This document shows positions 18,572 to 57,962 of a stretch of DNA of 64,000 bases, piece by piece. The position numbers were made by a program, and so were the translations under genes. The stretch comes from Mesostigma viride (lineage: Eukaryota > Streptophyta > Mesostigmatophyceae > Mesostigmatales > Mesostigmataceae). The notes beneath the pieces were generated by a model. It made no database searches. It worked only from the letters and a program-made list of their open reading frames with translations, and was not told the origin of the DNA. Position 1 is the first letter of the stretch; every line of letters starts with the position of its first letter. The stretch covers positions 62,001-126,000 of the forward strand of contig RPFO01000502.1 in assembly GCA_009746045.1 (NCBI GenBank), read 5' to 3'.

Positions 18572-18578
18572 TGCATTT

Positions 18579-20856: not shown

Positions 20857-21440
20857 TGTTACGTCCCTGCCCAGACTCACCTAGCCTGAGCTACGTAGCG
20901 AAAGACCCTCCTTGCCGGAATTAGGAATAATTCAAGATAGCCTAAAGTAGGTTGCGCTTCACGACGTGAGTCGTGAGATATCTGGCATCACGGCTTAATG
21001 CCAAGCTAATTAGTTCACACTTATATTGGCTAGCAATACCAATTACAAATGGATAATGCCCCGGGCTCAATGTGTAGGCGTATTCGCACTTATCATTCAT
21101 TAAACCAAGAGGACGAGACTCTCGTCCTCGGACCAATTTAACCTAGGTTGGTTGCGGCGCAGATACACGCCAATTTCCCTAGAACAATCCGAGTCACTCA
21201 TTCCACGTAGGATCCGGGCCGACATCGACCCTCAACTATAGGATCCACGCCTAGAACTACTGACGGACTCAGAACTGGCGCGGCGCCACAGCGCCGGCCC
21301 CTAAAAGGACAACCTAGGACCAAAATAACTAGTCCAATTCACACAATAGCCAAGGTCCATAAAACCCAAGTCCAATAGACCAAACAGCCTTAGTAATTTA
21401 TTCCATTGTTACGTCCGACCAAAAGGGCAGGGACGTAACA
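20857..21440 (-). repeat. 3' LTR of gypsy A
   Basis: 584 bp. The ends are a 16-bp perfect inverted repeat, TGTTACGTCCCTGCCC, much longer than the usual few bases. An internal hairpin GAGGACGAG-ACT-CTCGTCCTC lies at 21109-21129. Confidence 0.95.
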
Positions 21441-24137: not shown

Positions 24138-24217
24138 GCCAAGGCGTTAGTCGGCGTGTACCTGTACCCGGCTCACACCTCACTCTCACCCTACACCGTA
24201 CACCGTTATACCGCCTA

Positions 24218-27200
24218 TTAATGCAACTGGTGTGTCTTCTTGTATGCTTCCAATAAGCGGGCGCAACCCGCTAACTCAGTAGGGGTGCGCCAGGAGTCCT
24301 CCGACTCATGCTGCGCGAATCGCCATCGCACACGGTACTGTCGCTGGGTCCCCCGACCTCGTTTGACATCTCGGTGTCCCACGATCGCAGCCACCTCATC
24401 CTCCTGTTCCCCGTGTCCGGATTGAACTCCAACGGGGCCGGGGGATTGACCCTACCCTGAATGGTGTTCTGGTGGTACAACTTGAGCTGGTCACGATGGA
24501 AACGGTTGGACGTGAGGTTCCATGACACCGGGACGTCCACCTGGAACATGACGTCGTCAAACTTGGTGAGAACCTTGTAGGGGCCCAGGAACATGGGACG
24601 AAGCTTAGTCTTCAGCTCCTTCTCCACCTTGTGTGAGAATCGTCCGATCTGTGGGCCCTCCACCAGGACCCAATCGCCCACCTCAATGGACGGCGCCCGG
24701 TTATCCCGCTTGCCGGCTGTCCTCTCCAGATACCGCTCGGTCGCGGCGCGGTAGCCCTGGACTGCACTGTTATGAGCCTGGTGCATCCGCTGCAGCAAGC
24801 GATCAACCCCCTGGCGTGTGTCCAGCTTGACCTGATCCTCTCCCCGTTCGGGGCTCATAAGCAGGTCGGGAGGCGTGAGAGGGTGCCTGCCAGAGTTGAG
24901 GAAAAAGGGGGTAAATCCGTGGGCGGCCTGGGGAGCATTGTTCAGGGAGAACTCCACCAAGCCCAGAAGTTCCTCCCAATTGCTGCCCACCGCGTCGGTG
25001 TAGTGTCGCATGGTCTCTTGCACTGTGCGGTTCAACCGCTCCACCAGATGTGACGACGAACTGTGGTAGGCCGTGCCCAGCGACACCTTGGTGCCCAGCC
25101 GTTCGAAAACTCCTGCCAGAATTTGGCCGTGAAGAGCTTGTCGCGGTCGGAGATGAACTGTCGGCTGAGCCCGTGGAACCGGAACACGTGCGTCAGGTAT
25201 ATCTTGGCGCACTCCTCCGCAGTGAGGTCGGCCGGACACGGGGCCAAGTGACACATGCGCGTCAGGCGGTCCACGAACACCAGGACCATGCTGTTGCCGC
25301 TCTTCGCCTTCTTGAACGGGCCGATGAAGTCCATCATGATAGAATCCCAAGGACCCATCGGATCAGGTAACGTCTTGGGGACGGCTTGCGAGCCCGTGTT
25401 CCTGGACTTCATGATCTGGCACGAGGGGCACTGGCGCACATATGTCTCAATATACTCCTTCATCCCTGGCCAGTAGAAATGTTTGCGGGCCCGAGGATAA
25501 AGACGGTGGCTTCCTTGATGTCCGCCTAGAAGCGAATCGTGGAGCTCGTGAAGCAAGGCGGCCCTACAAAGCTCCGGGACATACAGCCGCCATTCCTCCG
25601 GCTGGACTCACGAACAGGCGTCCATCCTGGAACTTGCAAGGGTAGGCACCCATCTGCTGGGGATGCGCCCGGATGGCTTCAAGCGCCGCTTCCTCCGTGA
25701 CCGTGAAACGACTGATCATCGTCTCCAGGTCCGACGTGACTGTGAACGCGTCCGCGGCCGGTCTGTCTCCGCACTCGCCTGGTTGACGAATTCGGAGAAG
25801 ACTGTGGGCGGGCCGATCGGCTGAAGCTGAAAAATTCCCTGGGGCGGCACCACATGGCTAAGGGGCATGCGCATATGCGATCCCTCCCCCTCCCCGGGGG
25901 CGTCCACGTCCTCGTGGGCACTCGTCTCCTCCAAGAGAGGTGACAAGTCATCGCTGGTGGTGTGTCCCAGATGAAACAGGTGGCGGGCCCGGGGAGACCG
26001 TGGCTCCGCGCCGTAGGCGGTCCCCGGGGCGGCCACTGGTACGCAAGTGGTATGAAGCACATCCATGTCCTCGTAGAACCAATAGTCCGCCCGTCGCGAA
26101 AGGGCGTCTGGCACCACGTTGTCCGCGCCCTTGACGTATTGGATCTTGAATGGCGCAAACTGTGACAAGTACTCCATCCACCGCGCTTGGCGGGGCGTCA
26201 GGTTGGGCTGCACCAGGAGGTGGGTGAGCGGCCGGTGGTCGGTGTGGATCACCAGGCGGTGGGGGTCGAGATCCCCCTGCTCACTAATGGCCACCGAAAA
26301 CTGGGCCCCCAGAAGATGATGACGCCACGTGTGGCAGCTGTAGACTACTGCCAGAAGCTCCTGCTGATGCACTGGGTAATTCCGCTCCGCCGGAATCATT
26401 GTGCGTGAGATATACTCGATGGGCTGAAGACCCTTGCCTTGGTCCTGCAGGAGGACACCCCCGATGGCCACCTTGCTGGCGTCCGTAGCCACGACGAAAG
26501 GAAGGGCCGGGTCCGGCAGGATAAGGACTGGTGCTGTGGTGAGGTGGCGCTTAAGCGCCTCAAAAGCCTGTTGGCACTGCTCAGCCCAGAGGAACGGGGT
26601 ACCCTTCTTGAGAAGAGCGTTGATCGGGCGGCGATGGTGGCAAACCGCGGGATGAACCGTCGGTAGTAAGATGCCAATCCCAGGAAGCTGCGCACCCCCT
26701 TCACGTCCGTAGGGACAGGCCATTGCTGGACGGACTCGATCTTCTCGGGTCGGTCGCGATGCCGTCTGCGGACAAGGTATGGCCCAGAAACGGCACGCAG
26801 CGGCCGGCGCGCACCTTGGCTTTCCGCGCCGAAAGGTGCTCATCCTCCATGATCTGCAGCACGGCGTCCACATCCTCTAGGTGCTCCTCGAACGTCTTGG
26901 AGTACACCAGGATGTCGTCCAGATACGCCAGCGCGCACGTGCGCTTGTAGGTCCAGGGCGGGCGCGCCCCCTTCTGCGGGTCCGCCAGGTCCTGGGAGAC
27001 CTGCGGCAAGTGGGCTGTGCCCATCACCGGACGGAGGATATCATTCATCAGCATCTGGAAGGACGCCGGCGAATTGCACAGCCCCATTGCCGCCACCCGA
27101 AACTGATAGTGACCGAAGGGCGTAGCGAACGCGGTCTTGTGGCAGTCTTCTGGCGCGATGCGCAGCTGCCAAAACCCGTCCGCACAGTCGATGACGGTGA

Positions 27201-28156
27201 AACACGTGGCCCCCTGGACACGGTTGAAGATGTCGTCGATCCGCGGTAGAGGATACCGGGACTTGACGGTGATGGCGTTCAGCTTCCGGTAATCCGTCAC
27301 CAGACGCCACTTGCCTCCTGGCTTGGGAACGAGCAGCACGCCCGCTGAGAAGGGGCTGTTGCTGGGTTCAATGAGCCCGCGTCGAGCAGTGAAATGAGGA
27401 TCTTCTTGAGCTCCACCAGCTCGACTGGGCCCATGCGGTACATGGGAGACACGGTAGGACCGGAACCCTCCTGGAGCTGGACACGGTGCAACACCGATCG
27501 ATTGGGAGGGAACTGGGGGTGCGATCCGCAAAAAGGGTAGTGCGCTTCTCCAGGACGGCATTGAACCGCGCCAGCTCATCCGGTGTGAATCCGGCACCAA
27601 TCTCGTTAAGCAGAGCCTGAGTGCTATCCAGGTCTATGCGATACATCGCGTACTCCTTGCCCTTCCGAAGCTGGCGCGCCAGCGTCTTGCTACTCATCAG
27701 GATCTGGGACGCTGGTCGAGGCCCGTCCGCCGAGCGCTCGTGTGTAATGTTATGGACCTCCGCGGCCTGTGCCCTATACTCGCTGTCAGGGCACCAGAAT
27801 GAACCATCCGGAAACCAAACTACCCGCCGGCGCACACTGATGTCCACATCCTGCTTGTCCAGCCAGTCCACTCCAATGATGATGTCGGCAGCGCCCAGCG
27901 GCGCAATAGTCGCCACCAGGTCCACCGGCGTGCCCTGCAGCACACCCTTGATGTCTGCTAGGCCCGGCGATTGGTGTCGCCGACCGTCTGAGTAGGTGAC
28001 ATAGACTGCCGTGGTGTGAGGCCGGGGTACCAGGCCCAGCCGACGCACCAGGGCCTCGTTGATGAAGGACGTGGAGGCGCCGGTGTCGACCAGGAACTTC
28101 ACGTCCATGATCGTTTTCTCCTTCAAATACGGATCAAGGACGGTGGGAGGGACCAA
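24218..28156 (-). pseudogene. pol: Pol of gypsy A: protease, RT, RNase H, integrase, chromodomain
   Basis: The Ty3 order is read across frames. Protease: FLVDTGASTSFI near 28090 and DIIIGVDWL. RT: VTDYRKLN, FTVIDCADGFWQL, and catalytic AYLDDILVYS near 26920. RNase [42 protein letters not shown]. Integrase: zinc motif H..H..CPSC, then catalytic D (MMDFIGPF), D (FISDRDKL), E (SHLVERLNR), and a GPY-like module (LGPYKVL). A chromodomain (IVGHRDVKRGRGTQRQYRV, RWRF) follows in a shifted frame near 24400-24260, ending at the stop at 24218. Chromodomains direct chromovirus integration to marked chromatin. At least five frame changes are needed. Confidence 0.88.
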
Positions 28157-28435
28157 TAACCCTCCGCTGAAAAGAAACAGATGCCGCGAATCTCCTGAGA
28201 TGCACGCGCCGCCGGTTGGGAGGCGCGTCTGCGGCCACGTTATTGACGTCTACCTCTACTCTAGTTGACTCCGCGTCTGGGCTACCATCTGATTTTTCTA
28301 TCCTATCCCCTACCCCGGGACCCAAGCCCATGGGCAGGGCTACTACTCCCGAGGAGCGGTGGGACGGGAGGCCGCCTCGCCCGACCACCCGCCCTCTTCC
28401 CCCCCTCCTCCTCTTCGTCAGCCCCCTCCTCGTCG

Positions 28436-30243
28436 TCATACTCGTAGCCAGCCACTGCCTGCGTTTGGCCGGAAGAGGAGGACTGTCGCCGCGCCTCCAT
28501 CTCGTTGACCGCACGCAACACACCCTTGGTAGAGCTGGTCGCGGGTGGTCGCGGCTGCTGGTACTGCGTCGGGCCTGTCTGGCGTGCTGCAGGCGAGCCG
28601 CACGCTCACCCGCGTTGCGGGGTCGATCCCGAGGACCGGAGGAGTCGGGGCGGCTGCCGAAGGCCGGGCCGGAGAAACGAACACTGGGTGTCCCTCTCCT
28701 GTCCCACGACTGGCGTTCTTGCCCCGGAGCTTGGGGCAGTCGCGCTTGAGGTGCCCCACCTCGCTGCACATGAAGCAGCGCGCCTTGCTAGCGTCGATCG
28801 CGTTGACGCCAGGTCAGTGTAGCCCTCGTCAGGGTCGTCGAGGTACTCGTCCTCCTCCTCGCCGGCGAAATCAGTGGAGTACATCTGGTTCACCCGTCGC
28901 GGGGGAGCAGGTCTGAAGAAACGGCGCACCGAGGGTGCGCGCCCGCGAGCCACCACGTCGGCCACCTGCAGAAGGTATCTCTGGATATTCAGGATGTCCC
29001 ACTCCTTCCAGGGGACCTCAGCGTAGTGTTTGAATACCTCGTCCTGCAGCTCGGGGCTGAGCGCCTCGATGAATCTGATCTTGTACTCGTACCAGGTCAT
29101 GTCGGTTAGATAAGCGGCGCTGGACTCAAACTTGGACAGAAACTCGCGATATGGGGTGGTCCCCTGGCGCAGCTTGCCGAAAGCGATCCGCTCGTGGAGC
29201 TCCGCGTCTGGGGGTATCAGCTTGCGGCGCACCCGGTCCATCAGCTCCTCCACGGTTTGCGGGTATGACTGGGATGCGATGCTCTCACAGTTCAGGATGC
29301 TCACCACCGAGGGGTCCATGCAGGTGTTGACCACGTGGGGATCAAATCACAGGTGGCCAGTTCCCAGCTGTTGTGATTGCACCAAACGGTATACTGCTGT
29401 TGCCACATGCGTCCCCATTCGTCGACCTCTCGCGGTTTCATATCCGCGTGCAGCTTGGGTACATTCTTGAAGGTAGGCATCGGTGGGGCCTTTATCGTGT
29501 TAAGCTTAGGCCCACCGACCTCTCTGTAGGAGATGGAGCCGAATGCTGGAGGCTGCGACCGCGGGAGAGATCCGGATCTGTCCGGTGTGCCGTGTGTCCG
29601 GCGCACCTGTACCGACGAGGGGTGTTCGTACCCGGGTCATCCAGTGCCACCCTGCTGAAATTCAGGTTACCACGGCGCAGGCGAAGGGACCACGCTACTG
29701 TCAAGCGCCCGTAGACGCTGCGGTTGAGGTGCCGGGCGCTGGGCTGGCGGTGAGTCTCCTCGTCGCGGGTGGTGACACTGCTCCGGGTCTCCCCTGGGCT
29801 GGTCCGTGGTCTATGAACCAACGGGCGGGCCCTGCGTGACAGATCCCTCGTCCGCCTCGTTAGTCCCTTCCAGGTCATCGAACTCGCCATCTGCCCCTGG
29901 GCCTCCCCTTCCTCGTCCGAATACCATAGCGCGTGGGTAACAGGGACGTGCTGCCGAAGGACACTCTGCGTCTGCCCCGGTGTGGGGGCCCGGTGGAGGT
30001 CTCTGGGGCCGCCCCCGACCTGCCCAAGGATGCGTTGGCCGCCCGGTGACTGGCTGCTGCTGGCGGTAGTGCAGGGTATCTCCATTCTCGTCTCCCTGCT
30101 GCTCTGGATCCGGTGGTAGCCATTGTGGTCTCGTCTGGGGTTGTTGCTGCTGCATCCGGGGTTGCTGCTGTTGCCATTGCTGCTGTGGTGACCGTTGCTG
30201 CTGCTGATGCTGTTGCTGCTGTTGCTGCTGCTGCGGTTGCTGC

Positions 30244-30299
<56 letters not shown>

Positions 30300-30665
30300 T
30301 TGCTGTTGCTGCTGTTGCTGCTGCTGCTGTTGCTGCTGCTGTTGCTGCTGCTGTTGCTGCTGCTGCGAGTACTCTTGGAGCCTCTCTCGGTCGTTCCTGT
30401 CATCTCCCTGCCTGGGTAAGGCGTCTATATTGTCCCCATCCGCTGGGAACCTAGGGTTCTGATCTCTGGATCGTGGGGAGCCTTCCGCAGGTCTCTCCAT
30501 GACCTCACCTGTATCTGTCCCTGCTTGGACGTGCAGTGGTACCTCTATACCCTCTGTACCGTGCTCGTGGTTGTCTACCGGTTCTATCTCTGTATTCTCT
30601 AGATCTCGTTCTCTAGTCTCTTCCTCTGTATCTCTGGCGTTCCTTGTTTGGGACCGTGTGGGCAT
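28436..30665 (-). pseudogene. gag: Gag of gypsy A, polyQ-rich, frameshifted
   Basis: Starts ATG at 30665. Residues ~100-185 are a near-continuous polyglutamine tract encoded by CAG/CAA. The frame then changes at about 29890, 29610 and 29330. The capsid-type region is at 29520-28950 (PPMPTFKNVPKLHADMKPRE, FGKLRQGTTPYREFLSKFES, RFIEALSPELQDEVFKHYAE). A CCHC zinc knuckle, CSEVGHLKRDCPKL, lies near 28765. These blocks align by order and motif with gypsy B gag (LFANLPKLDVKSTPQQF, FGTLQQGTKSFKEYMKEFDA, CYHCKEVGHLKRECPKF), so they are homologous. Gag forms the particle and packages RNA. Confidence 0.82.
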
Positions 30666-30797
30666 GGTGCTCGTACCGGTACCTTACACTGCAGGCAACA
30701 CCTCCCCAGGAAGGAAGAGAGAGCAAGAGAGAGAGCAACCACGTGCTATAGAGCTATAACTATAGAACCTAATACTACTCCCTAGTAATGGTCTCCT

Positions 30798-31136
30798 CTA
30801 CTGCTTGCTAGGGCCAATGGTCAGCTGAGAGAAAGTCACTGTAACTGCTGTCCCCTCCCCCTGACTGCTGAGTGTGGGTGGCTTGGAGCATTCACGTGTG
30901 ACGTGCATCCCCTCAGGCAATGGCATGTGTTCCCTAACAAACCTATCTGCATCTGTAATGTTATCAAACCCTTTCCACTTAGCACTAGAGCCTTGGGACA
31001 ATATCTTATCTTTAATATGCTCCTCACAAGTCTTCCAGCTGTAGAATATAGCAGGCCTACCCTTATCCCCGTCGTGAGCTACTGCGTAGTAAGGAAATCC
31101 AGACTGTCCACCCTTGTTTATTTTACGTCGTGGCAT
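30798..31136 (-). CDS. Small first ORF of gypsy A: RNase H1 N-terminal / Cauli_VI-like domain
   Basis: An intact 112-codon ORF from ATG 31136, upstream of gag. Residues 15-67 fit the RNase H1 hybrid-binding domain, also found in caulimovirus P6/TAV: YYAV at 16-19, P28-A-I-F, the key SW at 33-34, C37, AKWKGF at 52-57 and D62-A63 before FV. In RNase H1 this fold binds RNA:DNA hybrids; in CaMV P6 it belongs to the translational transactivator region. No RNase H catalytic part is attached. Gypsy B has an equivalent ORF in the same place. Role here unknown: hybrid binding or reinitiation on a polycistronic RNA are inferences. Confidence 0.75.
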   Translation of the reverse strand: MPRRKINKGGQSGFPYYAVAHDGDKGRPAIFYSWKTCEEHIKDKILSQGSSAKWKGFDNITDADRFVREHMPLPEGMHVTRECSKPPTLSSQGEGTAVTVTFSQLTIGPSKQ

Positions 31137-31881
31137 GTTACATCATAGTCTGGCAGCGGCTTGCAAGCAAGAGAGAAAGGGGAAACCCAGGCTACCTCTA
31201 ATGCAGTGACCTTAAACAAACGAGGAGAGAGCACGGAGTGTATCACAGCACACGCCCGAGCCTTCCGCAGGAACGGGCTATACGCACACACGGAGGTAAA
31301 CACCGTCAACACAGTCGGCAACAGCCAGACGGTATCCACCCCCACGACCCCTTGCAGGTCAAACAACGAATGTCCGTCTCCGCGACGTCCATGGGCACCA
31401 ACAACATTTACAACCTATAGAGGCACAACATATAACATAAACCCCCTGCGCGCGCGTTCCCGGATAGAGAGCAAGCTCGCCAGCTAGCCTTCAGCAGGCA
31501 TAGCTTTGTAAAGAAAGAATTCTAACTAGGGGACGTACCATCTTCGATGACGTTAAACCCTCCTGAGCTGGCCGCCACCCGGTGTCGTTGAAGGCAAGCC
31601 CTGGCCGCCACTAGGTGTCGTTGAAAACAGGAGAGCTGAACGCTATCGTTGACAGCACCTCACCACAGGACTATTGCTAGCCCCGCCGAGTATCCCAGAC
31701 TGGCCGCTTGCTGCCTAGGTCGTCGTTGAATCCCTTTACGGGCTGGCCGCCGGCCTGACAGCAATCGTTGAATTCCGGAACCTCTACCTACGCCAAGCTT
31801 CGTCTTGGTATCCTAATTGGCTCACTAACCCTCTCCGCGAGAGTTAGCTAACCTTTCCAGCACATTTCCTCCGATAACCAG
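31137..31881 (-). other. Leader of gypsy A with short repeats
   Basis: About 745 bp between the 5' LTR and the first ORF. 31560-31780 repeats CTGGCCGCC...GTCGTTGA several times. No conserved ORF seen. Confidence 0.5.
31866..31880 (-). other. Candidate primer-binding site of gypsy A
   Basis: On the minus strand TGGTTATCGGAGGAA begins one base inside the 5' LTR. Its complement TTCCTCCGATAACCA ends in CCA like a tRNA 3' end. It is not the common initiator-Met site TGGTATCAGAGC. Confidence 0.55.
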
Positions 31882-32464
31882 TGTTACGTCCCTGCCCAGA
31901 CTCACCTAGCCTGAGCTACGTAGCGAAAGACCCTCCTTGCCGAATTAGGAATAATTCAAGATAGCCTAAAGTAGGTTGCGCTTCACGACGTGAGTCGTGA
32001 GATATCTGGCATCACGGCTTAATGCCAAGCTAATTAGTTCACACTTATATTGGCTAGCAATACCAATTACAAATGGATAATGCCCCGGGCTCAATGTGTA
32101 GGCGTATTCGCACTTATCATTCATTAAACCAAGAGGACGAGACTCTCGTCCTCGGACCAATTTAACCTAGGTTGGTGGCGGCGCAGATACACGCCAATTT
32201 CCCTAGAACAATCCGAGTCACTCATTCCACGTAGGATCCGGGCCGACATCGACCCTCAACTATAGGATCCACGCCTAGAACTACTGACGGACTCAGAACT
32301 GGCGCGGCGCCACAGCGCCGGCCCCTAAAAGGACAACCTAGGACCAAAATAACTAGTCCAATTCACACAATAGCCAAGGTCCATAAAACCCAAGTCCAAT
32401 AGACCAAACAGCCTTAGTAATTTATTCCATTGTTACGTCCGACCAAAAGGGCAGGGACGTAACA
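31882..32464 (-). repeat. 5' LTR of gypsy A
   Basis: 583 bp, nearly identical to 20857-21440: one base missing in the CTTGCCG(G)AATTAGG segment and one T/G difference in GGTTGG(T/G)GGCGGCG-type sequence. Confidence 0.95.
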
Positions 32465-32469
32465 CTGAG

Positions 32470-43761: not shown

Positions 43762-44326
43762 TGTTACGTCCTAAACTTCTACCTCCACCTCTACCTCTAC
43801 TGGGCCTGATACTACCTAAATTGGTCAGGCCTCCTCTACTCAAACCCCTAGCGAAAGACGAACGAGACGGAGCTGATCTCAATGCATTCACGTATGTGTT
43901 GCTATAATACGCCATACAACCATTTACCCGAACCCGTTTATTCCAGGAATAGAGGAAGGAAACACACTACACTGCCATGACCCAAGCCTATATGTGTTAA
44001 TTCATTTAACACACGCCGAGTGACCACACGAGGGGTGGAACGTGCATAAATGGTCACAAACGGTCCAAAATGCTCGGGCCGACCTGGCCCTCGCATACAG
44101 ATAGACAGGCAGATGCACAGGTGCACGCTGGTCCACTACATTCTACCAAAGGATAAAGACCACTAATAAAGTACGCGGCGCGGCGCCCCAAAAGCACCCA
44201 CTGTACCACAGTACTGTTACGAGGACAATAGTGTCCCAGTTGGAACTACACGTAAATCTAGGAACAACCGAGGCAAAGGACCTAATTTACGTCCGTAACT
44301 ACAACGAATTGTTACGCGACGTAACA
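43762..44326 (-). repeat. 3' LTR of gypsy B
   Basis: 565 bp, TGTTACGTCCTAAAC to TACGCGACGTAACA. It is preceded on the minus strand by the polypurine run TGTGGGGGGGGAGG (44327-44340). Confidence 0.92.
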
Positions 44327-47026: not shown

Positions 47027-47102
47027 GATGGCTGCGGAGGGGAGGGGACAACCAACCACCCACCAACAGCAGGAATACGATAAGGGAGGGGCAGGTTGCC
47101 AG

Positions 47103-50100
47103 CTAGAGCTGGTGTAGGGTTTTGTAGTCCTGCAACAAGCGGCTACAACCATCTAACTCACTCTCCGTGTACCATACTTTATCTACCTCACTACGAGCAT
47201 ACATCCATTTAACCTTATACTGGCGCTGGGTACCGCGGCCCTTTTTAATATCTCTATGGGCCACGATACCCTCTACCTCGTCTTCTACCTCACCAGTGTC
47301 AGGGTTATGCTCTAAAGGGGCAGGAGCTAGTTCTCTACCAGCGAACGTGCTTTGGTGATAAAGCTTCAGCTGGCTTCTATGGAAGGTGTTAGAATGTGTC
47401 TGCCAAGAGGTAGGGATATCTATTTTATATAAGAAATTACCTACTCTAGACAACACACGGAAGGGTCCTAAGAAGGCGGGCCTAAGTTTCACTTTAAGTT
47501 CAGCTTCGAACTTGTGAGCAAAACGGCCAACACGGGGGCCTTCTACTAAGACTAAATCTCCTATATCTATTTCAGGCGCTCTTCTATCTAAGGAGGCACG
47601 CAACCTAGCAAGGTACTTGGCCTGAGCCTTTTGGTACCCTGAAATTGCGTGATCATGTGCATTTTTCATTTTATCTAGCAAGGCCTGCACACCTTCTACG
47701 GTATCCCGGGACACCTCGTCCCTATCCCGTAAAGGACTAGCTAAGAGGGAGGTAGGAGTAAGAGGCTGTCTACCAGTATCTAGGAAGAAAGGCGTATAGC
47801 CATGCGCAGCCTGAGGGCAATTGTTAAGGGAGAACTCTACCAAGCATAGATTAATTAATTAATTAATTAATTATCAACATCACTCCGTTGGGAGTAGATG
47901 TAGCACATAGCCCTGAGAAGGGGCATATGGCTTTTAATACATTCTAGGCTACTTCATGCAAGGGTGGGAATGTAAGCTACCCCTGCTCTAGGTGCACCAG
48001 GGCACCCGCACCCTCATGGTCTATCACGCTATGCCCGGGTAAGGGGGGGAGCATGCCTGTGAGGGGGAAGATCATCATGGCTATACAAAAACTAGAGCGT
48101 GGCATCTCAGCAGAGAGCAGCTCTCTGCATGGGCACAGCATTACTAAATAAAACTAGGCATCGTCTGGAGTGTGGCTCATCATAGGCACACATGTACATT
48201 ACTAAAAAGGCTAGGCCTAAGCTGGTATAGTGCCTGTAGTAGGCGGGCATGTACAAGGCCACTGTCTAACTATTCTACACTACTGCTGTATTCCCCTAAA
48301 CTGGGGCGTCTGGAGTCGCTGGGGCCGCGGGGGTCGCCTGCCAGGGCTTGTGGCCGACGTAGATGGCCGCCCCCTTCCAGTACACCGGCTGCCCCGCCTT
48401 GGTCTGCCGGAGCTGGAGGTAGGTCGGCCATAGCTCCCGTCGCCGTTGTTGCTGCGCCAGGGTCAAGTCGTCGTCAAGGGTGAAGAGAGTCTTCTCGAGC
48501 CGCTTGCGGCGTCTGAGAAAAGAAATCTTGTCCGCCGGGGTCTTAAAGGTGAGAAGGAGCGGGGGCGGCCCTGCCTTACCCCGCGCGCGGGGAAGGCGGT
48601 GGGCGGCCAGCTCGATCTCACCAGTAAGGCCCATGCGATCAAGGATTTCTCTCTCAAAAGCACGCGCAAGCTTCTCGGAATTCTCACCTTCCTCCATCTT
48701 GAGATTCTTGACAATGACGTTGAGGCTGCGCTTGGCGAGCTCGGCCTCCTCGCGGAGGTCAAGCGTCTGCCGTTGAAGCTGGGCTGCGACAGCGGAGGTG
48801 GTGGAGGTGGTGTGTTGCTTAAGCATGTCCGCCCAGGTGGTGATGGGAGGAGCATCGCCGGTCAGGCCAGCCGGGGCTGGCTTGGCGGCAATGTCCTTCA
48901 CTGCCTGGGCGGTGAGGCCTGCGGTGCCTGCCAAGCATAGATAATCCTCCCAATCACTCCCAGAACCATTCACATAGTGCCTCAGAGCTTCTTCCACTAC
49001 CCTATTAAGACGTTCTACTAGATGAGAGGAGGAGGAGTGATAGGCAGTACCGAACGTAACCTTGGTACCAATAGCAGCGAAGAACTGCTGCCAAAAGTCA
49101 GAGGTAAATAGCTTATCTTTATCACTAATAAACTGCCTACTCAAACCATGATATCTATAGACGTTATTAAGGTATAGGCGTGCGCAATCGCGTGCGGTGA
49201 GTTCTAAGGGACACGGCACGAGATGACACATACGAGTAAAACGATCTACGAAAACAAGGATCTGGGCGTTACCTCTATCATTCTTCCTAAAAGGTCCTAC
49301 AAAATCCATCATAATAGAGTCCCACGGCATGATGGGATCAGGTAGGTCCTAGGTTCTGCTATCTGTCCTACATTGTTGGGTTTCATCTCCTGGCAAGATT
49401 GACAGGTTCTAACATACTCATCTACATCCTTAAAAGGGAAGGCCAGTAGTAAGAGCGGGCTACTAGGTCCCGTACCCGTTTACCACCCTGATGAGCAGCT
49501 AAGTCATGCAACTCAAAGAGCAAGGAGGAGCGACAGATAGGAGGGACATACAGGCGCCATTGAGGGGGAGAATCTGCTATCTGCACATATAAAAACCCAC
49601 CTACAAATTTACAAGGGTGCTTGCCTAATTGTTGGGGATGGGCAGCAATGGCAGCTAAAGCTTCCGGCTCAGTGGCCGTAAATCTACTAATAAGGCGTTC
49701 AAGATCAGAGGTAGGCATCGCTACAGAGGTATCCAGAACAGGTTTAAAGAGGTCTCCTACCGCCTTGCCAAAGAGAAGGGGAGGTCCTAGAGGGACTATG
49801 TTATCATAAGACTTTCCTGACCTAGTCGCTATATGGCTAAGCGGTATAGAAATTTTATTTTTCCCCTCCCCCCCACCGAGACCACAGGAAGGGCCTCACA
49901 CGGGAGAGAGAGTCCTACGTGAGAAAGGAGATCAGGCATGCGAACAGCTGTATGAAAGAGATAGGCATAGGATTCATCATCAGGTAGTTCACCATAAGGG
50001 GTTACACCCATAGTAGTAGGAACTAGAGTAGTATTGAGAACATCCAAGTCCTCGAAAAAGGAGTAATCTGCGCGACGGGAGAGTGCATCTGGTACTATGT

Positions 50101-52194
50101 TATCTACACCCTTAACATACTGAAGTTTAAAAGGGGAAAACTGTGCTAAAAACTCCATCCAGCGCGCTTGACGAGGGGTAAGGTTGGGTTGAGAGAAGAT
50201 GGGTAAGGGGACGGTGGTCCGTCTGGATAACTAATCTATAAGGATCTATCTCACAGGGTTCATTCAGGCAAACATCAAATTGGGCACCTTTAAGAAAGTG
50301 CTGCCACGCGTGGCAACAATACACCACCGCTAAGAGTTCCTGCTGGTGTACGGGATAGTTACGCTCCGCAGGGAGCATTGTCCTAGAGATATACTCAATT
50401 GGCTGTAAGCCCTGACCCTGATCCTGGAGAAGGACGCCCCCTATAGCTACCTTACTAGCGTCTGTAGCTACCACAAAGGGTTTAGTAGTATCGGTAGGAT
50501 GAGTACGGGAGGAGAGAGGAGTAGGGATTTTAGACACTGAAAAGCCGACTGACACTCACTACTCCAAACAAAGGGGATATCTTTCTTTAATAAATGATTG
50601 ATAGGGGCTGCTATAGTTGCGAAACGCGGGATAAAACGCCTATAGTAAGAGGCAATCCCTAGGAAACTACGTACACCTTTAACGTCGGTAGGGGTAGGCC
50701 ATTCCTGAATTGACTTAGTTTTATCCGGGTCGGTAGCGACCCCGGCATCTGACAAGACGTGTCCTAAAAATGGTACACTCCTACCAGAACGAACTTTAGC
50801 ACGGCGAGCCCACAAAGAATTTTCAGCCATTATTTCTAAGACTTTCTTTAAATCACGTAGGTGCGTTTCAAAATCAGGAGAGTAAATAAGGATATCATCT
50901 AAGTAAGCTTGAGCACAAGAACGATCGTGCTCAGATAAAGAAACAGAGGAGAAGGAAGGATCCTTTAAATCAGATGACACTTGAGGAAGGTGAGAATTAC
51001 CCATAACAGGTCTAAGCACTTCATTCATTAACATTTGAAAAGAGGCAGGAGAGTTACAGAGTCCCATAGCCGCTACTCTAAACTGGTAATGACCAAAAGG
51101 GGTAGCAAAGGCGGTTTTATGGCAATCCTCAGGCGCTATACGCAGCTGCCAAAAACCATCCGCACAATCCAGTACCGTGAAACAGGTGGAACCTTTAACC
51201 TTATTAAATATATCATCAATACGAGGTAGAGGGTATTTAGACTTCACAGTAATATCATTTAACTTCCTATAATCAGTAACTAGGCGAAACTTGCCATTTG
51301 GCTTAGGAACTAACAGGACACCAGCTGAGTAGGGGGAGTTACTAGGCTCTATCAATCCTGCTTCTAATAGTGACACTAAAATCTGTTTTAGTTCCTTTAA
51401 TTCGGTAGGGCCCATTCTATACATCGGAGAGTGCGTAGGAACTGCACCGTCCTTGATAACTACACGGTGTAAAACAGAACGAGGAGGAGGATAAGAAGGA
51501 GTCTTTTCTTCAAAAACTTTTGAGGAATCTATCACAGCCATGTATCTTACTATTTCATTTTCAGTAAATCCCACTCCTATTGTATCCACTGTGTTTACAT
51601 CTATATCCACACTATTATTAGGATAGGTATCTCCTGTACTTCTAACTGAAGGAACATACATAATAGGTATCCATATTCCTTTAGTTCAGATCGCAATTCA
51701 TCATTGGACATTAATACTTCAGGTATAGGTCTTACAGGAGGATCAACAGGTGTAGGAGGAGTAATATCTACCAAGGATAAATTTTCTAATCTATAATGAC
51801 GTTCCGGTACCCAGTAAGAGCTATCTGGAAACCAAATGACCATGGTATCATAATTAATAGTAATCTTATTATCCTGGTGCCAATCTAATCCTAGTAATAC
51901 ATCAGCTGTAGTGATAGGGCCTATAGTGGCCGTCAGGTTGACAGTACGTCCTTGTATGACCAGGGGAAGGGACACCGTACCCGGGGAATGACTGGTGCGA
52001 CCGTCAGCATAATGGACAGTGACAGTTTTGGTGTGAGGGATAGGGACTAGTCCTAAACGCCTAACTAGGGCCTCGCTCACAAAGGAGCTAGCCGCACCGC
52101 TATCCACTAACACAGAGACGTTCAAAAGTTCATCAGCATGCAAGAAGGGGTCTACAACAGTATGGGGAACGGTTAAGCCACCATTCAAAAACAT
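47103..52194 (-). pseudogene. pol: Pol of gypsy B, interrupted by a LINE
   Basis: Protease at 52194-~51640 (VLVDSGAASSFVSEALVRRL, ADVLLGLDW). RT at 51661-50468 (VTDYRKLNDITVKSKYPLPR, CADGFWQL, AYLDDILIYS). RNase H in two frames at 50555-49829 ([34 protein letters not shown]). Linker and zinc region at 49718-49422. Integrase at 49330-48943 (D in MMDFVGPF, D in FISDKDKLF, E in HLVERLNRVV), resuming at 47839 with VEFSLNNCPQAAHGYTPFFL, then LGPFRVL and a chromodomain (IVAHRDIKKGRGTQRQYKV, KWMY) ending at 47103. Removing the LINE and one CCAAGCATAGAT copy restores the frame LCL-VEF. At least four frame changes remain. Confidence 0.88.
47852..48930 (-). mobile_element. LINE-type insertion carrying only an ORF1 fragment
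   Basis: Flanked by a 12-bp duplication CCAAGCATAGAT (47840-47851 and 48931-48942). Minus orientation with the 3' tail (TAAT)n at 47852-47872. The ORF (~48930-48296) is L1-ORF1-like: coiled-coil part (LDLREEAELAKRSLNVIVKN), RNA-binding domain (KMEEGENSEKLARAFEREIL, AHRLPRARGKAGPPPLLLTF) and a C-terminal basic part (RRKRLEKTLFTLDDDLTLAQ). A ~440-bp 3' UTR follows directly, with no ORF2. It is 5'-truncated, and the lack of ORF2 resembles 'half-LINE' copies. Confidence 0.8.
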
Positions 52195-52300
52195 AAGAGG
52201 ACGGACACGTAGTGGTAGGGATGATTCAGCTCCTACAGAGGTTATAAAAACAGGCAGGCAAAAATTATTATCTGGGGTACTATCTAAGGACCTGTCCAGG

Positions 52301-54039
52301 TTACCCCCGGCTGACAGGCCTACTGTTCCCCCTCCCCCCCAAATCCATAGGAACTAACCCCGAAGAAGACCCTGGCGAAAAAGCCACTGCTGGAGGGTCA
52401 CGAGGGAGCGAAGAGGGTGCGGGAGCCTGATTATCATAGGGGAACCCTGGGGGTCCTGTCTGCACAGCATTCAGCCTACTAGGGGTAGCTGAGGGAATGC
52501 GTCCTGGAGTGGGACGAATAGGAGCACGCTGAGGGGTACGAGGAGGGCGAGCGTCGGGATGAGGGGGAGCACCCGAAAGGAACTTGGGGCACTCACGTTT
52601 AAGATGACCTACTTCCTTACAATGATAGCATGTGATATGAGAGACATCCAGAGCTGAAAGGTCAGTAACGCAAATATCTAATTCTTCTACATAGGAGTTC
52701 TCCTCCTCAGGGGTAAGGCTAATATTATTAATACGGGAACGGGTAGGAAGAGAAGGAGTGGTGAAGAAATCTGCTACTCGTAAGAGATGCTGACGCACAT
52801 GCTTGAGGGGTAGATCAGTAAAACGGTAGGCAGAGAACTGGCGCTTTACTTCACGTAATAAGGGTCTACTGAGGCCTTGTAGGAAGCGAGCACGTACTTC
52901 TGCGCCCGACAAATCCCTAATTCGTACCATCTGTGCATCAAATTCTTTCATATACTCCTTAAACGATTTAGTACCCTGCTGCAAGGTACCAAAGGCTAAT
53001 CTATCCTGCCAATCTGCATCAGGAGGGACTAAATGGTTCTCTAAACGCTTAAACAATTCTGCTACTGAGTTAGGGTAGGCATGAGAGGCCAAAGACTCAC
53101 ACTGGATGAGGTTAGCAAGCTCAGGAGTAATACAGGTAGTAAGATAGTGAGGGACTAGTACAGCATCAGAGAGACGCCATCTATTATGATTTTGCCACGA
53201 CTCTGTATTCTGGGTAAGCAACATAATAAAAGTGAAAAACTGTTGAGGGGTAGACTTAACATCCAACTTGGGTAGGTTAGCAAAGAGGGGAAGAGCAGGG
53301 GGCTTAGGGGGATTAGAAGGGTCAGATTTACCCATAGGGCCACTGTCTTCCACTGCTACATACGAGGGATAGAAAGAAGGAAGAGGAAAGGTTTTGGATA
53401 GGGGTCTAGAAGGGGCCACCGTTTCAGGATGGTGCCCATAGGAGAAGGGAACAGTATATTGCTCACGAAGGGAGGAGTAGGCAAAATGATCATAGTTTCT
53501 GTCATCTAGGGCATGGTGCTGAAATCACTATTAACTTCTAAATCAGCCACACGGGTAGGGACCTGGGCAGCCTCGTAGGCCGTATCAGGGTAGGACCAAG
53601 AAGCAGGGGGATAAAAGGGAACTGCACTAGGGCGCCCAGAAGGGCCGACAGGGGCAGAGGTACGACCCGTGTTAAAAGCAGGGATGGAAGGCACAGGGTG
53701 GGGAGGAGGCCTAGAAGCATTGTCAGGGAGTGAGGACCTAATTGAAGGTTGAGCCAAGGTTGCAGGAGGGGCAGGGGCCTGGTTCATAGCAAAAGAGGGT
53801 TCATCACTAAATCTGACACGTTGTTCAAAGGTAGGTGGGGTAATTGAGGGACGACGGCGACCACCAGCAACAGGAGAAGGAGGTGAGGTACGCAGATTAC
53901 CTTGAGGAGTGAGATGGTGCACCGTTTCCAAGGAGTCCCGTCGGTTACCACGAGTATTGTTATTGTTATTAGTAGTATTATTATTATTAGTAGTAGTATT
54001 GGTAGGTATAGGCGACATATCTCCACCCACTGGATCCAT
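52301..54039 (-). pseudogene. gag: Gag of gypsy B
   Basis: Starts ATG 54039. The N-terminal 177 codons are low-complexity (a polyN run, then P/S-rich) and end at TAG near 53506. The capsid part is in the -1 frame, reading LDDRNYDHFAYSSLREQYTV from the overlap, so one -1 shift joins them. Capsid: LFANLPKLDVKSTPQQFFTF, FGTLQQGTKSFKEYMKEFDA, RARFLQGLSRPLLREVKRQF. CCHC knuckle CYHCKEVGHLKRECPKF near 52610. Stop at 52301. Homologous in order and motifs to gypsy A gag. Whether the -1 shift is programmed is unknown; no classic slippery heptamer was seen. Confidence 0.82.
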
Positions 54040-54162
54040 CTTTAATTAAGTAAAGGAAAGAAAACAACAAACGTTGCCTTAAGAAAGGAATAGGAATCTG
54101 AATTGAAGCAATAAAGGAAAAAGGAAAAACCTTGAATGTCTTAAGCAAAGAAACAATTAAAA

Positions 54163-54555
54163 TCAATCCTTTTTAACCACAGTAATGGATAGGGAACCAA
54201 ACTCTAAGGTGAGAGGAGTATCTGAGCTAGATGAGGATGCAGCCCGTTTAGGGGGAGAAGAAGGAGGAGTAGCAAAAACTAGAGCTTCTACAGGAGGACG
54301 ACCATGAGGAATAGAACGTACATGTAGGCCTAAATCTGATTCACTATGGTCTATAAGGAATTGCTGAGCTTCTTCAAAGGTAACAAATTTCTTATACCTA
54401 ACTACGTTATATGTACGGTTTTGCACTATCTTCCTAGCATCTGACCAAGAAAGGAAAATGGCTGACCATTGAGGGGTAATAACTACGTAATATTTGGCTA
54501 AGCTATTGTCACTGGACGAATGGGAAGGAGCAGTAAAAACACGACGCTGGCTCAT
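54163..54555 (-). CDS. Small first ORF of gypsy B: RNase H1 N-terminal / Cauli_VI-like domain
   Basis: An intact 130-codon ORF from ATG 54555. Residues 20-67 carry the domain: KYYVV at 21-25, A32-I-F, SW at 36-37, R53-Y-K-K-F at 53-57, then F60-EEA-QQF. The C-terminal half is Ser/Pro-rich with a conserved-looking end (LTLEFGSLSITVV), comparable to the end of the gypsy A protein (VTVTFSQLTIG). Sequence identity between the two is low but position, length and key residues agree. This argues for an old, selected gene. The domain family binds RNA:DNA hybrids or dsRNA; its role in the element is inferred only. Confidence 0.78.
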   Translation of the reverse strand: MSQRRVFTAPSHSSSDNSLAKYYVVITPQWSAIFLSWSDARKIVQNRTYNVVRYKKFVTFEEAQQFLIDHSESDLGLHVRSIPHGRPPVEALVFATPPSSPPKRAASSSSSDTPLTLEFGSLSITVVKKD

Positions 54556-55124
54556 GGTAACGCACCTGGTGGGTCTTGGGACGTCACGCTAGAAGAAGGC
54601 GTAGGCGACTTATCTGGGCGATCTGGAGCATCGAAAGCAGCATGAGGGCGGAATAGTCCAGCGCTCGTCCTAAAATCAGCGACCGAATAGTCCAGCGCTC
54701 GTCCAAAAAGCAGAGACCCGTATCTCTGCGGGTGCGGCCGTCTAATAAAACAGCAGCACGAAGGAAAAAGGTGTAGTCTACGACGACGCTACTCGTCTCA
54801 CTGTTGCCGAACCAAACAATTATCCTCTATCTACGACAGGAAGAGAATTATCCTCTATCTACGACAGGGAGAAAACTTGCGCAGGAAAACAAAGCGAAGG
54901 AGCTATCTACGAAAGGGTTTATCCGCTACGAGCAGGTCTAGCATCTAGGCAGATCGTGTCCCGAACCGGGCAGCACTACTCCCCCAGCTTGACGGCGACC
55001 CGCCCATTACCTGTCAAGAAAGTGTCGTCTTCGTATCCCTGGACGCGGAAGGGTTCTTGCAAAGGCGTATGTGACAAAGGACCGTCGTCTCGTTCTCTAC
55101 CTACGAAAGTTCCTCCGGAACCAT
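54556..55124 (-). other. Leader of gypsy B with short duplications
   Basis: Contains two copies of TAGTCCAGCGCTCGTCC (54655-54705) and two of ATTATCCTCTATCTACGACAGG (54820-54870). A 100-codon RG-rich ORF begins in the 5' LTR at 55278 and ends here at 54976 (SRGGLTNLGSIRPSRGRGGG); it spans the primer site, so its coding status is doubtful. Confidence 0.45.
55110..55123 (-). other. Candidate primer-binding site of gypsy B
   Basis: Minus strand TGGTTCCGGAGGAA, one base inside the LTR. It closely resembles the gypsy A site TGGTTATCGGAGGAA, and its complement ends in CCA. Confidence 0.55.
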
Positions 55125-56475
55125 TGTTACGTCCTAAACTTCTACCTCCACCTCTACCTCTACTGGGCCTGATACTACCTAAATTGGTCAGGCCTCCTCT
55201 ACTCAAACCCCTAGCGAAAGACGAACGAGACGGAGCTGATCTCAATGCATTCACGTATGTGTTGCTATAATACGCCATACAACCATTTACCCGAACCCGT
55301 TTATTCCAGGAATAGAGGAAGGAAACACACTACACTGCCATGACCCAAGCCTATATGTGTTAATTCATTTAACACACGCCGAGTGACCACACGAGGGGTG
55401 GAACGTGCATAAATGGTCACAAACGGTCCAAAATGCTCGGGCCGACCTGGCCCTCGCATACAGATAGACAGGCAGATGCACAGGTGCACGCTGGTCCACT
55501 ACATTCTACCAAAGGATAAAGACCACTAATAAAGTACGCGGCGCGGCGCCCCAAAAGCACCCACTGTACCACAGTACTGTTACGAGGACAATAGTGTCCC
55601 AGTTGGAACTACACGTAAATCTAGGAACAACCGAGGCAAAGGACCTAATTTACGTCCGTAACTACAACGAATTGTTACGCGACGTACATTACAATTCGTT
55701 CAAGTGGCCCGCCGGAGCGGCTGTACAATTTTTCCCAGTGAGCGCGCTGCCAAGTGTACTTGTGGGCAAATTTTTAGGTGCCCCGTCACTTCGAGGTACT
55801 AAAAATTAGGCTACGGTACGAATTCAGCGAATTTCAGCGAATTTTCAGTCGAACCAAAGGAAGTGACGCCAACTACCAAAAAGTTTCCGTTACGAATTTT
55901 CAGCCCAACACTCGCGCAAAATGAAGTGACGGCAACTACCAAAAATTTTCCGTTACGAATTTTCACTCCCACACGTTTGCACAAAAGACTTGACGGCAAC
56001 TACCAAAAAGTTTCCGTTACGAATTTTCAGTCCCACACTTCGCGCAAATTTTAGTAGGGCTGCACGCAAGCTACCTTTCAAAATTTTGCGCTAGTATGGA
56101 ACGCATTTCATTCGTCTGGAGGAACGCTGCCCGCCAACTACCCCCGTTCAGAAAGTTCCGCCGAAATTTACCCGAGATTTGGAAATCTGAACGTCCGCGC
56201 AAATTTTAGTAGGGCTGCACGCAAGCTACCTTTCAAAATTTTGCGCAAGTATGGAACGCAATTCATTCGTCCGGAGGAATGCTGCTCGTCAACTGCCCCC
56301 GTTCAGAAAGTTGCGCCGAACTTTACTTGAGATTTGGAAATCTGAACGTGCGGTTGGAGTTTCGCGGGGAAACCCAAGTTCCCAAGTAATTCACCAATGA
56401 CGCGCTTCGAACACTTGTCCGCTAAAACCTAAGCAGCCGCTCCGGCTGGCCACTTAAACGAAACTTGATGTAACA
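55125..56475 (-). repeat. 5' LTR of gypsy B, split by a MITE
   Basis: 55125-55686 matches the 3' LTR up to GCGACGTA. The final ACA follows the MITE at 56473-56475, next to the target copy GCTAG. Confidence 0.88.
55687..56470. mobile_element. TA-flanked MITE with internal tandem repeats
   Basis: A 784-bp element with imperfect ~37-bp terminal inverted repeats (left CATTACAATTCGTTCAAGTG; right end complement CATCAAGTTTCGTTTAAGTG, then GGCC.GCCGGAGCGGCTG in both). Flanked by TA (55685-55686 and 56471-56472), as in Tc1/mariner-type insertions. Inside are three ~62-bp repeats (55856-56045, core CAACTACCAAAAAGTTTCCG) and two ~150-bp repeats (56046-56350, core TAGTAGGGCTGCACGCAAGC). No transposase. 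Confidence 0.8.
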
Positions 56476-57962
56476 GCTAGGCCTGACTATTCTAGATATG
56501 TACACTACTACTGCTATATTCCCCTAAGCTGGGGTGTCTGGAGGTGCTGGGGCCGCGGGGGTTGCTTGCCAGGGCTTGTGGCCGACGTAGATGGTCGCCC
56601 CCTTCCAGTACACCGGCTTCCCCGCCGCGCTCTGCCGGAGCTGTCCAGAGGTAGGTCGGCCATAGCTACCGGCGCCGTTGTTGCTGCGCCAGGGTCAAGT
56701 CGTCGTCCAAGGTGATGTGAGTCTTCTCGAGCCGCTCGCGGCGTCTGAGAAACGAAATCTTGTCCGCCGGGTTCTCAAAGATGAGAAGAAGCGGAGACGC
56801 CCCCGCCTTACCCCGCGAGCGGGGAAGGCGGTGGGCCTCCAGCTTGATCTCACCACTGAGGCCCATGCAGTCAAGGATTGTGCTCTCAATTAAACGCCTG
56901 GGCAAGCTTCGAGGAGTTCTCACCTTCCACCATGTCGAAGTTCTTGATGATGATGTTAAGGCTGCGCTACAATAGTTGCATGGCGAGCTCGGCCTCCTCG
57001 CGGAGGTCGAGCGTCTGCTGCTGCATGGAGCTGTGCTGCGACGGCGGAGGTGGTGGTCGAGGTGGTGTGTCCGCCCAAGTCTGGGTGGGAGGGGCATCGC
57101 CAGCCGGGCCAGCGGGGGCTGGCTTCCAAGAGGCAATGTCCTTCTGACACTGCCTGGGCAGTGAGGTCTGCGGTGTTTTGCAGGCACTCGATGGCGATGG
57201 CGTTGTCCTGCTGGAGGCGCTTGTCGATGTCGCGGAGCTGGGCGGTGATGGAGGCGGTGGAGGCGGTGTGTGTGTGTGGGGGGGTGGATGCGAGGAGGGT
57301 GAAGGTGGCGGTGGAGATAGCGGGGAGCTCAGCAGCCAGCGTGTGGCCCACAGCTGCCACATCTGCAGCGAGGGGAGTCACGTGCTGTGAGATGGCTTCT
57401 TGGAGACGTGCAGAGGAGGAAGGTGAATTCGGTCAAGGGGGAGGGGTCCCGGAGGTCATCGGCAGAGCGCTTAAGGATGGAAAAGAGAGCGGCGAGCTGA
57501 AGGCGCGGGCGGGACCAGCCAGGCAGGTGGTCACGTCCGCGGTGGGAAAACCGGCCGTCAACTCCATTGCGGAGGCGATAATGGGCGCGGAGGCGCTGGC
57601 ACAGGTCAAGGAGTGAGGCGTACGACCCATAAAACACGAGCTCCAGTATCTGGATGGATGGCATGTCGAAATACTAGCCGGGCCCTGTCGACGTCAAAGG
57701 TGGAAAACAACCTGTCGACGTCAAAGTCGCGCTCAGACCAGCTAGGTTTGCCTGGGCGACTGCGCTTGGGCTCAGGCGATGCAGAGGGTGAGGAATTCCA
57801 AAGCCCAGGAGGGATCTGGGCGACCACCAGTGCGCTACTAGTGTCACCGCTGCCTTCCGGACCTGAGGGCGAAGCTGCAGCCGGAGCTGCAGACGTATTT
57901 TCAGGGCTTACATGCAGCGCAGCCGCTAGGCTGCGTTGCGTAGAGGAGCGTTTGCTCGTCAT
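56476..57962 (-). pseudogene. LINE ORF1 (L1-like) of the copy split by gypsy B
   Basis: ATG at 57962 opens ~118 codons (ARLVFRHAIHPDTGARVLWV). Frame changes lead through a helical segment (QRLRAHYRLRNGVDGRFSHR) and a coiled coil (QLRDIDKRLQQDNAIAIECL). The L1-type RNA-binding part follows in the 57187-56666 frame (IESTILDCMGLSGEIKLEAH, LIFENPADKISFLRRRERLE). It is strongly similar to the insertion at 48296-48930. ORF1 proteins coat LINE RNA. At least three frame breaks. The 3' UTR starts at 56520 and continues, beyond gypsy B, at 43761-43321. Confidence 0.75.

What the first reader, a model, noticed from the sequence alone, without database searches (positions are those of the whole stretch)
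54163..54555. Chromoviruses with a stand-alone RNase H1 N-terminal / Cauli_VI-like ORF before gag
Both complete Ty3 elements begin with a short intact ORF whose core fits the RNase H1 hybrid-binding fold: YYxV, AIFxSW, K-W/Y-K-x-F, then E/D-A (gypsy B residues 21-66, gypsy A residues 16-67 at 31136-30798). These ORFs stay open while gag and pol around them are broken. The same fold occurs in caulimovirus P6, which lets ribosomes reinitiate on polycistronic RNA. An element with four successive ORFs would need such a device, so a transactivator or hybrid-binding role is a reasonable hypothesis. I know of no Ty3 element described with this gene order.
Basis: partly seen in the sequence, partly recalled or inferred. 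Interest (0 to 1): 0.9.

Follow-up and report, generated by a model that had tools for sequence, protein, structure and literature searches.

The report
RNase H1-type binding domain before gag
Two related jumping genes in this stretch of DNA carry, ahead of their usual genes, a small extra protein that looks like the part of the cellular enzyme RNase H1 that grips RNA:DNA hybrids; it may help the element copy or protect its RNA, but that is untested and the host is unknown.

Summary

Staying open is expected by chance at this length. Only the shared domain points to a caulimovirus-type transactivator. An ORF0 before gag-pol is already described in rice Retrosat2, RIRE3 and RIRE8, with another, unassigned kind of ORF0.

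Best reading (inferred): an accessory protein that binds RNA:DNA hybrid or dsRNA during reverse transcription. Eight searches of an open-licence library listed no LTR retrotransposon with this domain. Host and copy number are unknown: the genome search did not complete and the protein database was off.

The parts
54163..54555 (-). ORF0 of gypsy B, 130 aa, intact, RNase H1 N-terminal-type (hybrid-binding) protein
   Evidence: ORF; PF01693 E 8.1e-8, 32.8 bits, cut-off 21
54358..54495 (-). hybrid-binding-domain core of ORF0 B (residues 21-66), with Y23, W37, K55, K56 aligned to human Y29, W43, K59, K60
30798..31136 (-). ORF0 of gypsy A, 112 aa, intact, same domain
30939..31094 (-). hybrid-binding-domain core of ORF0 A (residues 15-66); Y17, W34, K55 aligned to human Y29, W43, K59; human K60 replaced by G56
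55125..55686 (-). 5' LTR of gypsy B
   Evidence: 100 % identical to 43762-44323 over 562 bp
43762..44323 (-). 3' LTR of gypsy B (its own outer sequence reads 3 bases further, to 44326)
31882..32464 (-). 5' LTR of gypsy A; flanks carry the duplication CTGAG
20857..21440 (-). 3' LTR of gypsy A
   Evidence: 99.66 % identical to the other LTR
55112..55123 (-). primer-binding-site candidate of B (TGGTTCCGGAGG), one base past the inner end of the 5' LTR
   Evidence: tRNA not identified
31869..31880 (-). primer-binding-site candidate of A (TGGTTATCGGAG), one base past the inner end of the 5' LTR
   Evidence: tRNA not identified
54040..54162 (-). 123-nt ORF0-gag spacer of B, 70 % pyrimidine, with an acceptor-like YAG ranked 2 of 152
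30666..30797 (-). 132-nt ORF0-gag spacer of A, containing the pyrimidine-richest 30 nt of the element (28 of 30)
52301..54039 (-). gag of B in two frames (53506-54039 and 52301-53335); Retrotrans_gag and CCHC knuckle in the second
49829..52194 (-). protease, reverse transcriptase and RNase H region of B, broken into several frames
47103..49330 (-). integrase of B, interrupted by a LINE-like insertion, ending in SH3_Tf2-1 and chromodomain (PF00385, 32.6 bits, cut-off 25.1)
28606..30665 (-). gag of A, broken into several frames
24221..28168 (-). pol of A (protease, RT, RNase H, integrase, chromodomain-like end), broken into several frames

Best explanation
ORF0 is a small accessory gene of a chromovirus lineage, most likely captured from a cellular RNase H1. 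It encodes a free-standing hybrid-binding domain followed by a variable tail with a short conserved end. The protein most likely binds RNA:DNA hybrid (and perhaps dsRNA) of the element. It would thus supply in trans what cellular RNase H1 has in cis: a duplex grip beside the catalytic RNase H, which here sits in pol. The likely place of action is the virus-like particle during reverse transcription. SHOWN: the ORF, its position, the domain match, the fold of one member by prediction, most contact residues, and retention in two divergent elements. INFERRED: nucleic-acid binding, the step at which it acts, and the origin from RNase H1.
Confidence: 0.55

Rival explanations
1. TAV-like transactivator: ORF0 product lets ribosomes reinitiate on gag and pol after ORF0, as caulimovirus P6 does.
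For: Shared PF01693 domain. In CaMV the matching dsR domain lies in mini-TAV, a minimal portion that keeps residual transactivation, and binds TOR, eL18 and eL13 (PMC5902531 section 12 part 1). ORF0 precedes gag by 123 and 132 nt. Two of the 50 BFVD rows printed (ranks 9 and 49) are named transactivator/viroplasmin, but at E 0.20 and 0.72 with rmsd above 15.
Against: Proteins of 112 and 130 aa leave little room for the non-overlapping RISP and eIF3g sites described for TAV. No evidence for such an activator outside Caulimoviridae in a 2018 review. The domain occurs in proteins without such a role (RNase H1; bacterial RNase HI and RNase LS: passages). No unusual folding shared by both leaders (z -0.03 in B, -4.1 in A).
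Confidence: 0.1
2. Shield or decoy against host defence: the protein covers dsRNA or hybrids of the element and so blocks RNA silencing or host RNase H.
For: The domain binds dsRNA as well as hybrids (PMC1950709 and PMC5902531 passages). A stand-alone small duplex-binding protein suits this role (inference). ORF0 is about as diverged as gag (30 % of 76 and 34 % of 158 aligned codons identical in amino acid).
Against: The 2018 review says the dsR domain of CaMV TAV was earlier implicated in suppression of RNAi, then continues with 'However' (passage cut off). Nothing is known of silencing in this host.
Confidence: 0.2
3. Subgenomic expression by splicing: ORF0 and gag are read from differently spliced RNAs, so ORF0 needs no reinitiation at all. 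(This concerns how it is expressed and can be true with any function.)
For: The pyrimidine-richest 30 nt of element A (28 of 30) lie in the ORF0-gag spacer; 10 of 1148 same-length stretches reach that. In B an acceptor-like site in the spacer ranks 2 of 152. Leaders hold 9 (A) and 5 (B) ATGs ahead of ORF0.
Against: The two elements disagree: by pyrimidine richness the spacer of B is unremarkable (114 of 1181 stretches reach it), and by acceptor rank no site in the spacer of A is among the 12 best of 121. Donors are only consensus-like. No host introns were available to train on.
Confidence: 0.25
4. Passenger: a captured fragment of host RNase H1 with no function for the element, still open by chance.
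For: Short ORFs survive by chance here (P about 0.65 each from about 8 frame changes per element). Third-position GC of ORF0 differs from gag-pol: 0.49 against 0.72-0.79 in A, 0.29 against 0.33-0.45 in B.
Against: Same position and domain in two elements whose silent sites are saturated in the aligned ORF0 codons (pS 0.80 against pN 0.53 over 76 codons; the alignment favours amino-acid similarity). Related C-terminal end. W/K contact residues kept.
Confidence: 0.12

Closest known systems
Hybrid-binding (dsRHbd) domain of eukaryotic RNase H1 (PF01693; 3bsu, 1qhk)
   Same: Domain by sequence, predicted fold of A, most contact residues
   Different: Stand-alone in a retrotransposon, not fused to a catalytic RNase H domain
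Caulimovirus P6 / TAV (transactivator-viroplasmin)
   Same: Contains the same domain (passages); Caulimoviridae and Ty3 elements are in one order, Ortervirales (PMC13308828 passage)
   Different: P6 carries further, non-overlapping binding sites; its larger size is recalled.
Rice Retrosat2 / FRetro3 / RIRE3 / RIRE8 (LTR retrotransposons with ORF0 upstream of gag-pol)
   Same: Gene order ORF0-gag-pol; ORF0 diverges faster than ORF1 (PMC3485330, 12 of 40 passages)
   Different: The paper guesses hydrolase-like functions for their ORF0 and found it in grasses only; sequences not compared here
Ty3 elements that captured extra RNase H domains (oomycete Chronos and Archon; plant elements)
   Same: Capture of an RNase H module by Ty3 elements (PMC5348765 abstract)
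   Different: They captured the catalytic domain; here the non-catalytic N-terminal domain is in its own ORF
Fungal chromoviruses and Tat elements with additional genes
   Same: Chromoviruses with accessory genes such as a dUTPase (PMC2774666 passages)
   Different: No HBD-type gene mentioned in the passages seen
Pleurotus Helitron cargo gene capE
   Same: PF01693 domain carried by a transposable element (PMC4289320 passages)
   Different: Class II Helitron, one captured gene among several, read there as an endogenised viral sequence

Membership tests
RNase H1 N-terminal / hybrid-binding domain family (PF01693) | Score above the curated Pfam cut-off over the full profile | tested here: met
   32.8 and 30.1 bits against 21; profile 1-44 of 44 in both
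RNase H1 N-terminal / hybrid-binding domain family (PF01693) | beta-beta-alpha-beta-alpha fold, ORF0 of A | tested here: met
RNase H1 N-terminal / hybrid-binding domain family (PF01693) | beta-beta-alpha-beta-alpha fold, ORF0 of B | tested here: inconclusive
   Model too poor, mean pLDDT 37.8; third strand not formed
RNase H1 N-terminal / hybrid-binding domain family (PF01693) | Contact residues Y29, W43, K59, K60, ORF0 of B | tested here: met
   4 of 4
RNase H1 N-terminal / hybrid-binding domain family (PF01693) | Contact residues Y29, W43, K59, K60, ORF0 of A | tested here: inconclusive
   3 of 4, K60 replaced by G
RNase H1 N-terminal / hybrid-binding domain family (PF01693) | Binds RNA:DNA hybrid or dsRNA | not testable with these tools
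   needs bench work
RNase H1 (enzyme) | Catalytic RNase H domain in the same protein | tested here: not met
   No other Pfam family above cut-off in either ORF0 (A: only PF22686 at 12.6 bits, cut-off 27); in A the RNase H lies in pol
Caulimovirus P6 / TAV | HBD-type (dsR) domain | tested here: met
Caulimovirus P6 / TAV | Further separate regions for RISP, eIF3g and other partners | tested here: not met
   112 and 130 aa with PF01693 as the only Pfam match above cut-off; regions as reviewed in PMC5902531. Partner binding itself was not testable
Caulimovirus P6 / TAV | Sequence affinity to P6 rather than to RNase H1 | not tested
   no P6 sequence fetched or typed; BFVD fold search not significant
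Caulimovirus P6 / TAV | Activates reinitiation after long ORFs | not testable with these tools
   needs reporter assay
Ty3 chromovirus | Paired LTRs, PBS-like and PPT-like sequence | tested here: met
Ty3 chromovirus | Order PR-RT-RH-INT with chromodomain at the end of INT | tested here: met
   B: (PF00385 32.6 bits). A: order; its last 74-aa piece is 54 % identical to the chromodomain end of B, not itself scanned with Pfam

The most novel reading that the evidence does not exclude
A lineage of chromoviruses has divided RNase H1 between two genes: the duplex grip in ORF0 and the catalytic RNase H in pol. Such HBD accessory genes in Ty3 elements are also the kind of source from which the HBD of the caulimovirus transactivator came, since Caulimoviridae and Ty3 elements share an order. 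ORF0 would then be a living relative of the step before P6.
Probability: 0.08. Interest if true: 0.8.

Novelty: new variant of a known kind. Interest (0 to 1): 0.5.

Why it matters
LTR retrotransposons repeatedly capture RNase H catalytic domains, but my searches listed no report of one carrying the non-catalytic hybrid-binding domain of RNase H1 as its own gene. If it binds the element's hybrids, it gives a simple system to ask what duplex binding adds to reverse transcription. It would also give a comparison point for the origin of the caulimovirus transactivator, which shares this domain with RNase H1.

Tried and rejected
Reinitiation device as main reading: rejected as best, because only the shared domain supports it (see rivals). 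'Open while gag and pol decay' as evidence of selection: rejected on the lesion count. Conserved leader hairpin for ribosome shunting: B z -0.03 (52 of 100 shuffles fold as well), A z -4.1 (0 of 20); not shared. ATGs in the leaders (9 in 745 nt, 5 in 569 nt) are not more than about one per 64 nt. Codon-usage test: the ORF0 frame is the best of the three sense frames in both elements, but in A one antisense frame scores higher (-0.143 against -0.286). The RT row of that script was out of frame and was dropped; two gag rows in other frames were not used. Relatives in other collections: viral contigs with ORF0 of B, ORF0 of A, their alignment and the RT of B gave none (7, 8, 55 and 7 pattern matches, none confirmed); genome contigs with the RT gave none (20 pattern matches). 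These collections are viral and prokaryotic, so this says little. Foldseek on model A: no match at E 0.001 in PDB or BFVD; 3bsu is not among the 50 rows printed of 165. Model B was too poor to search with. Papers: eight searches for this domain or this gene order in a retrotransposon. By the titles and abstract starts listed none reports the domain in an LTR retrotransposon, but searches listed only 20 of 827 and 20 of 158, and the library holds open-licence PMC papers only.

Full report
WHAT IS THERE. The window is eukaryotic-type, repeat-rich DNA (GC 54 %) with two LTR-bounded Ty3 elements on the minus strand. Element B has LTRs at 43762-44323 and 55125-55686, 100 % identical over 562 bp. 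Element A has LTRs of about 584 bp at 20857-21440 and 31882-32464, 99.66 % identical over the 588-bp match. A is flanked by CTGAG on both sides and sits inside a Copia element. The LTRs begin TGTTACGTC and end GGACGTAACA, except the outer end of B's 5' LTR. One base past each 5' LTR follows a TGG-type primer-binding-site candidate (TGGTTCCGGAGG in B, TGGTTATCGGAG in A), and a G-rich tract precedes each 3' LTR. Pol order is protease, RT, RNase H, integrase. B ends in a chromodomain (PF00385, 32.6 bits). The corresponding end of A is 54 % identical to it. Both are chromoviruses.

THE ORF. Between the 5' LTR and gag each element has one intact ORF: B 54163-54555 (130 aa), A 30798-31136 (112 aa). 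Both hit PF01693 above its cut-off over the whole profile. Among 29 window proteins scanned with Pfam only these two do. A small HBD profile built from the two ORFs and two RNase H1 chains finds only these two among 1232 stop-to-stop ORFs, the next at E 3.2. Against PDB sequences at E up to 1, B alone gives three matches, all RNase H1, best E 0.018; A alone gives none; their two-row profile gives the same three, best E 0.0085.

BINDING FACE. In the human domain, W43A or KK59/60AA compromises RNA:DNA binding and loses discrete foci (PMC10639055, passages), and W43A/K59A/K60A/D210N is described as non-binding (PMC6868509, passages). Y29 and K60 contact the DNA backbone (PMC7657459, passage). B keeps Y, W, K, K and has an aromatic at 58. 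A keeps Y, W, the first K and has an aromatic at 58, but has G for K60. Hybrid binding is therefore likely for B and plausible for A.

CONSERVATION. A and B are distant: RT core 76 %, protease 45 %, gag about 32 % identical, and ORF0 is not found by tblastn at 0.01. Their ORF0s nevertheless align better than all of 2000 shuffles (score 65, shuffle maximum 54). Taken apart, residues 1-70 are matched by 2 of 2000 shuffles, the tail from 71 by 21, and the last 24 residues by 5, so the stop codon is probably the true end of the protein. Silent sites are saturated in the 76 aligned codons (pS 0.80, pN 0.53), so no dN/dS can be given. A third gag in the window (14723-16096) has no ORF0 relative beside it, since the profile finds only two in the whole window, but I did not establish whether that element is complete, and its gag is distant (about 25 %).

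WEAK ARGUMENTS CORRECTED. (i) Staying open: I count about 8 changes of frame along gag-pol in each element (by hand; in B one may be the normal gag-pol shift and one spans the LINE-like insertion), 1.15-1.24 per kb, so an intact ORF0 is expected with P about 0.65 in each and about 0.4 in both. (ii) Four ORFs: the second and third ORFs of B look like one gag in two overlapping frames. (iii) Gene order: rice Retrosat2, FRetro3, RIRE3 and RIRE8 have an ORF0 before gag-pol (PMC3485330, passages), so the order is known; the domain is what seems new.

HOW IT LIKELY WORKS. Cellular RNase H1 joins a duplex-binding domain to a catalytic domain. In these elements the catalytic domain is in pol and the binding domain is in ORF0. 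The simplest reading is an accessory protein that grips RNA:DNA hybrid or dsRNA of the element during reverse transcription. Binding and step are inferred. A silencing shield is the main rival. A TAV-like transactivator is possible: the matching domain of TAV lies in mini-TAV, which keeps residual activity. But only the shared domain is behind it, and the proteins lack room for the other TAV binding regions (PMC5902531 section 12 part 1). The same review knew no evidence for such an activator outside Caulimoviridae. How gag is reached is open. The spacers are 123 and 132 nt. In A the spacer holds the pyrimidine-richest stretch of the element but none of its 12 best acceptor-like sites; in B it holds the second-best acceptor-like site but is unremarkable in pyrimidine richness (114 of 1181 stretches). 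Splicing is thus no more than possible.

NOVELTY. Ty3 elements are known to capture catalytic RNase H domains (PMC5348765, abstract) and other domains such as an m6A demethylase (PMC9289625, passages). PF01693 has been seen as Helitron cargo (PMC4289320, passages). Eight paper searches listed no LTR retrotransposon with this domain, judged by titles and abstract starts; two of the lists were cut at 20 of 827 and 20 of 158. The library is open-licence only, and protein databases were out of reach, so unannotated or database-only examples may well exist. I rate it a new variant of a known kind.

LIMITS. The host is unknown; its genome could not be searched (14 unanswered calls) and the protein database was off. 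Everything rests on two elements.

Noticed in passing
21659-22561 (-), 2170-2895 (+), 44695-46575 (-): Both Ty3 elements have a further ORF between the chromodomain and the 3' LTR. The one of A clearly resembles an ORF at 2170-2895 (score 173, maximum of 500 shuffles 71); A to B is marginal (68 against 67) and B to 2170-2895 is not supported (28 of 500 shuffles reach it). No Pfam match.
   Followed up: partly
55670-55700: The 5' LTR of B departs from the 3' LTR in its outermost 3 bases and no target-site duplication is visible (left flank GCTAG), so B may be rearranged at its 5' edge.
   Followed up: partly
48279-48926: LINE-like piece inserted in the integrase of B, 82 % identical to 56507-57175 just outside the element; that it is LINE-derived is my reading.
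   Followed up: partly
18052-37424: Element A is nested in a Copia element (RVT_2 at 34947-35750) whose own LTRs (18052-18571, 36905-37424) are 99.8 % identical; it interrupts the ORF that starts at 18622.
   Followed up: partly
54976-55278 (-): A 100-codon ORF with RG-rich stretches starts inside the 5' LTR of B and runs into the leader; no Pfam match at E 10.
   Followed up: no
31137-31881 (-): The leader of A folds more stably than 20 shuffles (z -4.1) and, by eye, contains repeated CAACGACACC/GGCGGCCAG blocks; the leader of B does not fold unusually.
   Followed up: partly
7061-7728, 8620-9292, 13754-14410: Three direct copies of a 660-bp repeat, 96-99 % identical, close to a third Ty3-like gag (14723-16096): possible solo or nested LTRs.
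   Followed up: no
47000-54700 and 24200-31300: Young elements (LTRs 99.7-100 % identical) with about 8 frame changes each in gag-pol: either assembly errors or transposition of defective copies in trans.
   Followed up: no
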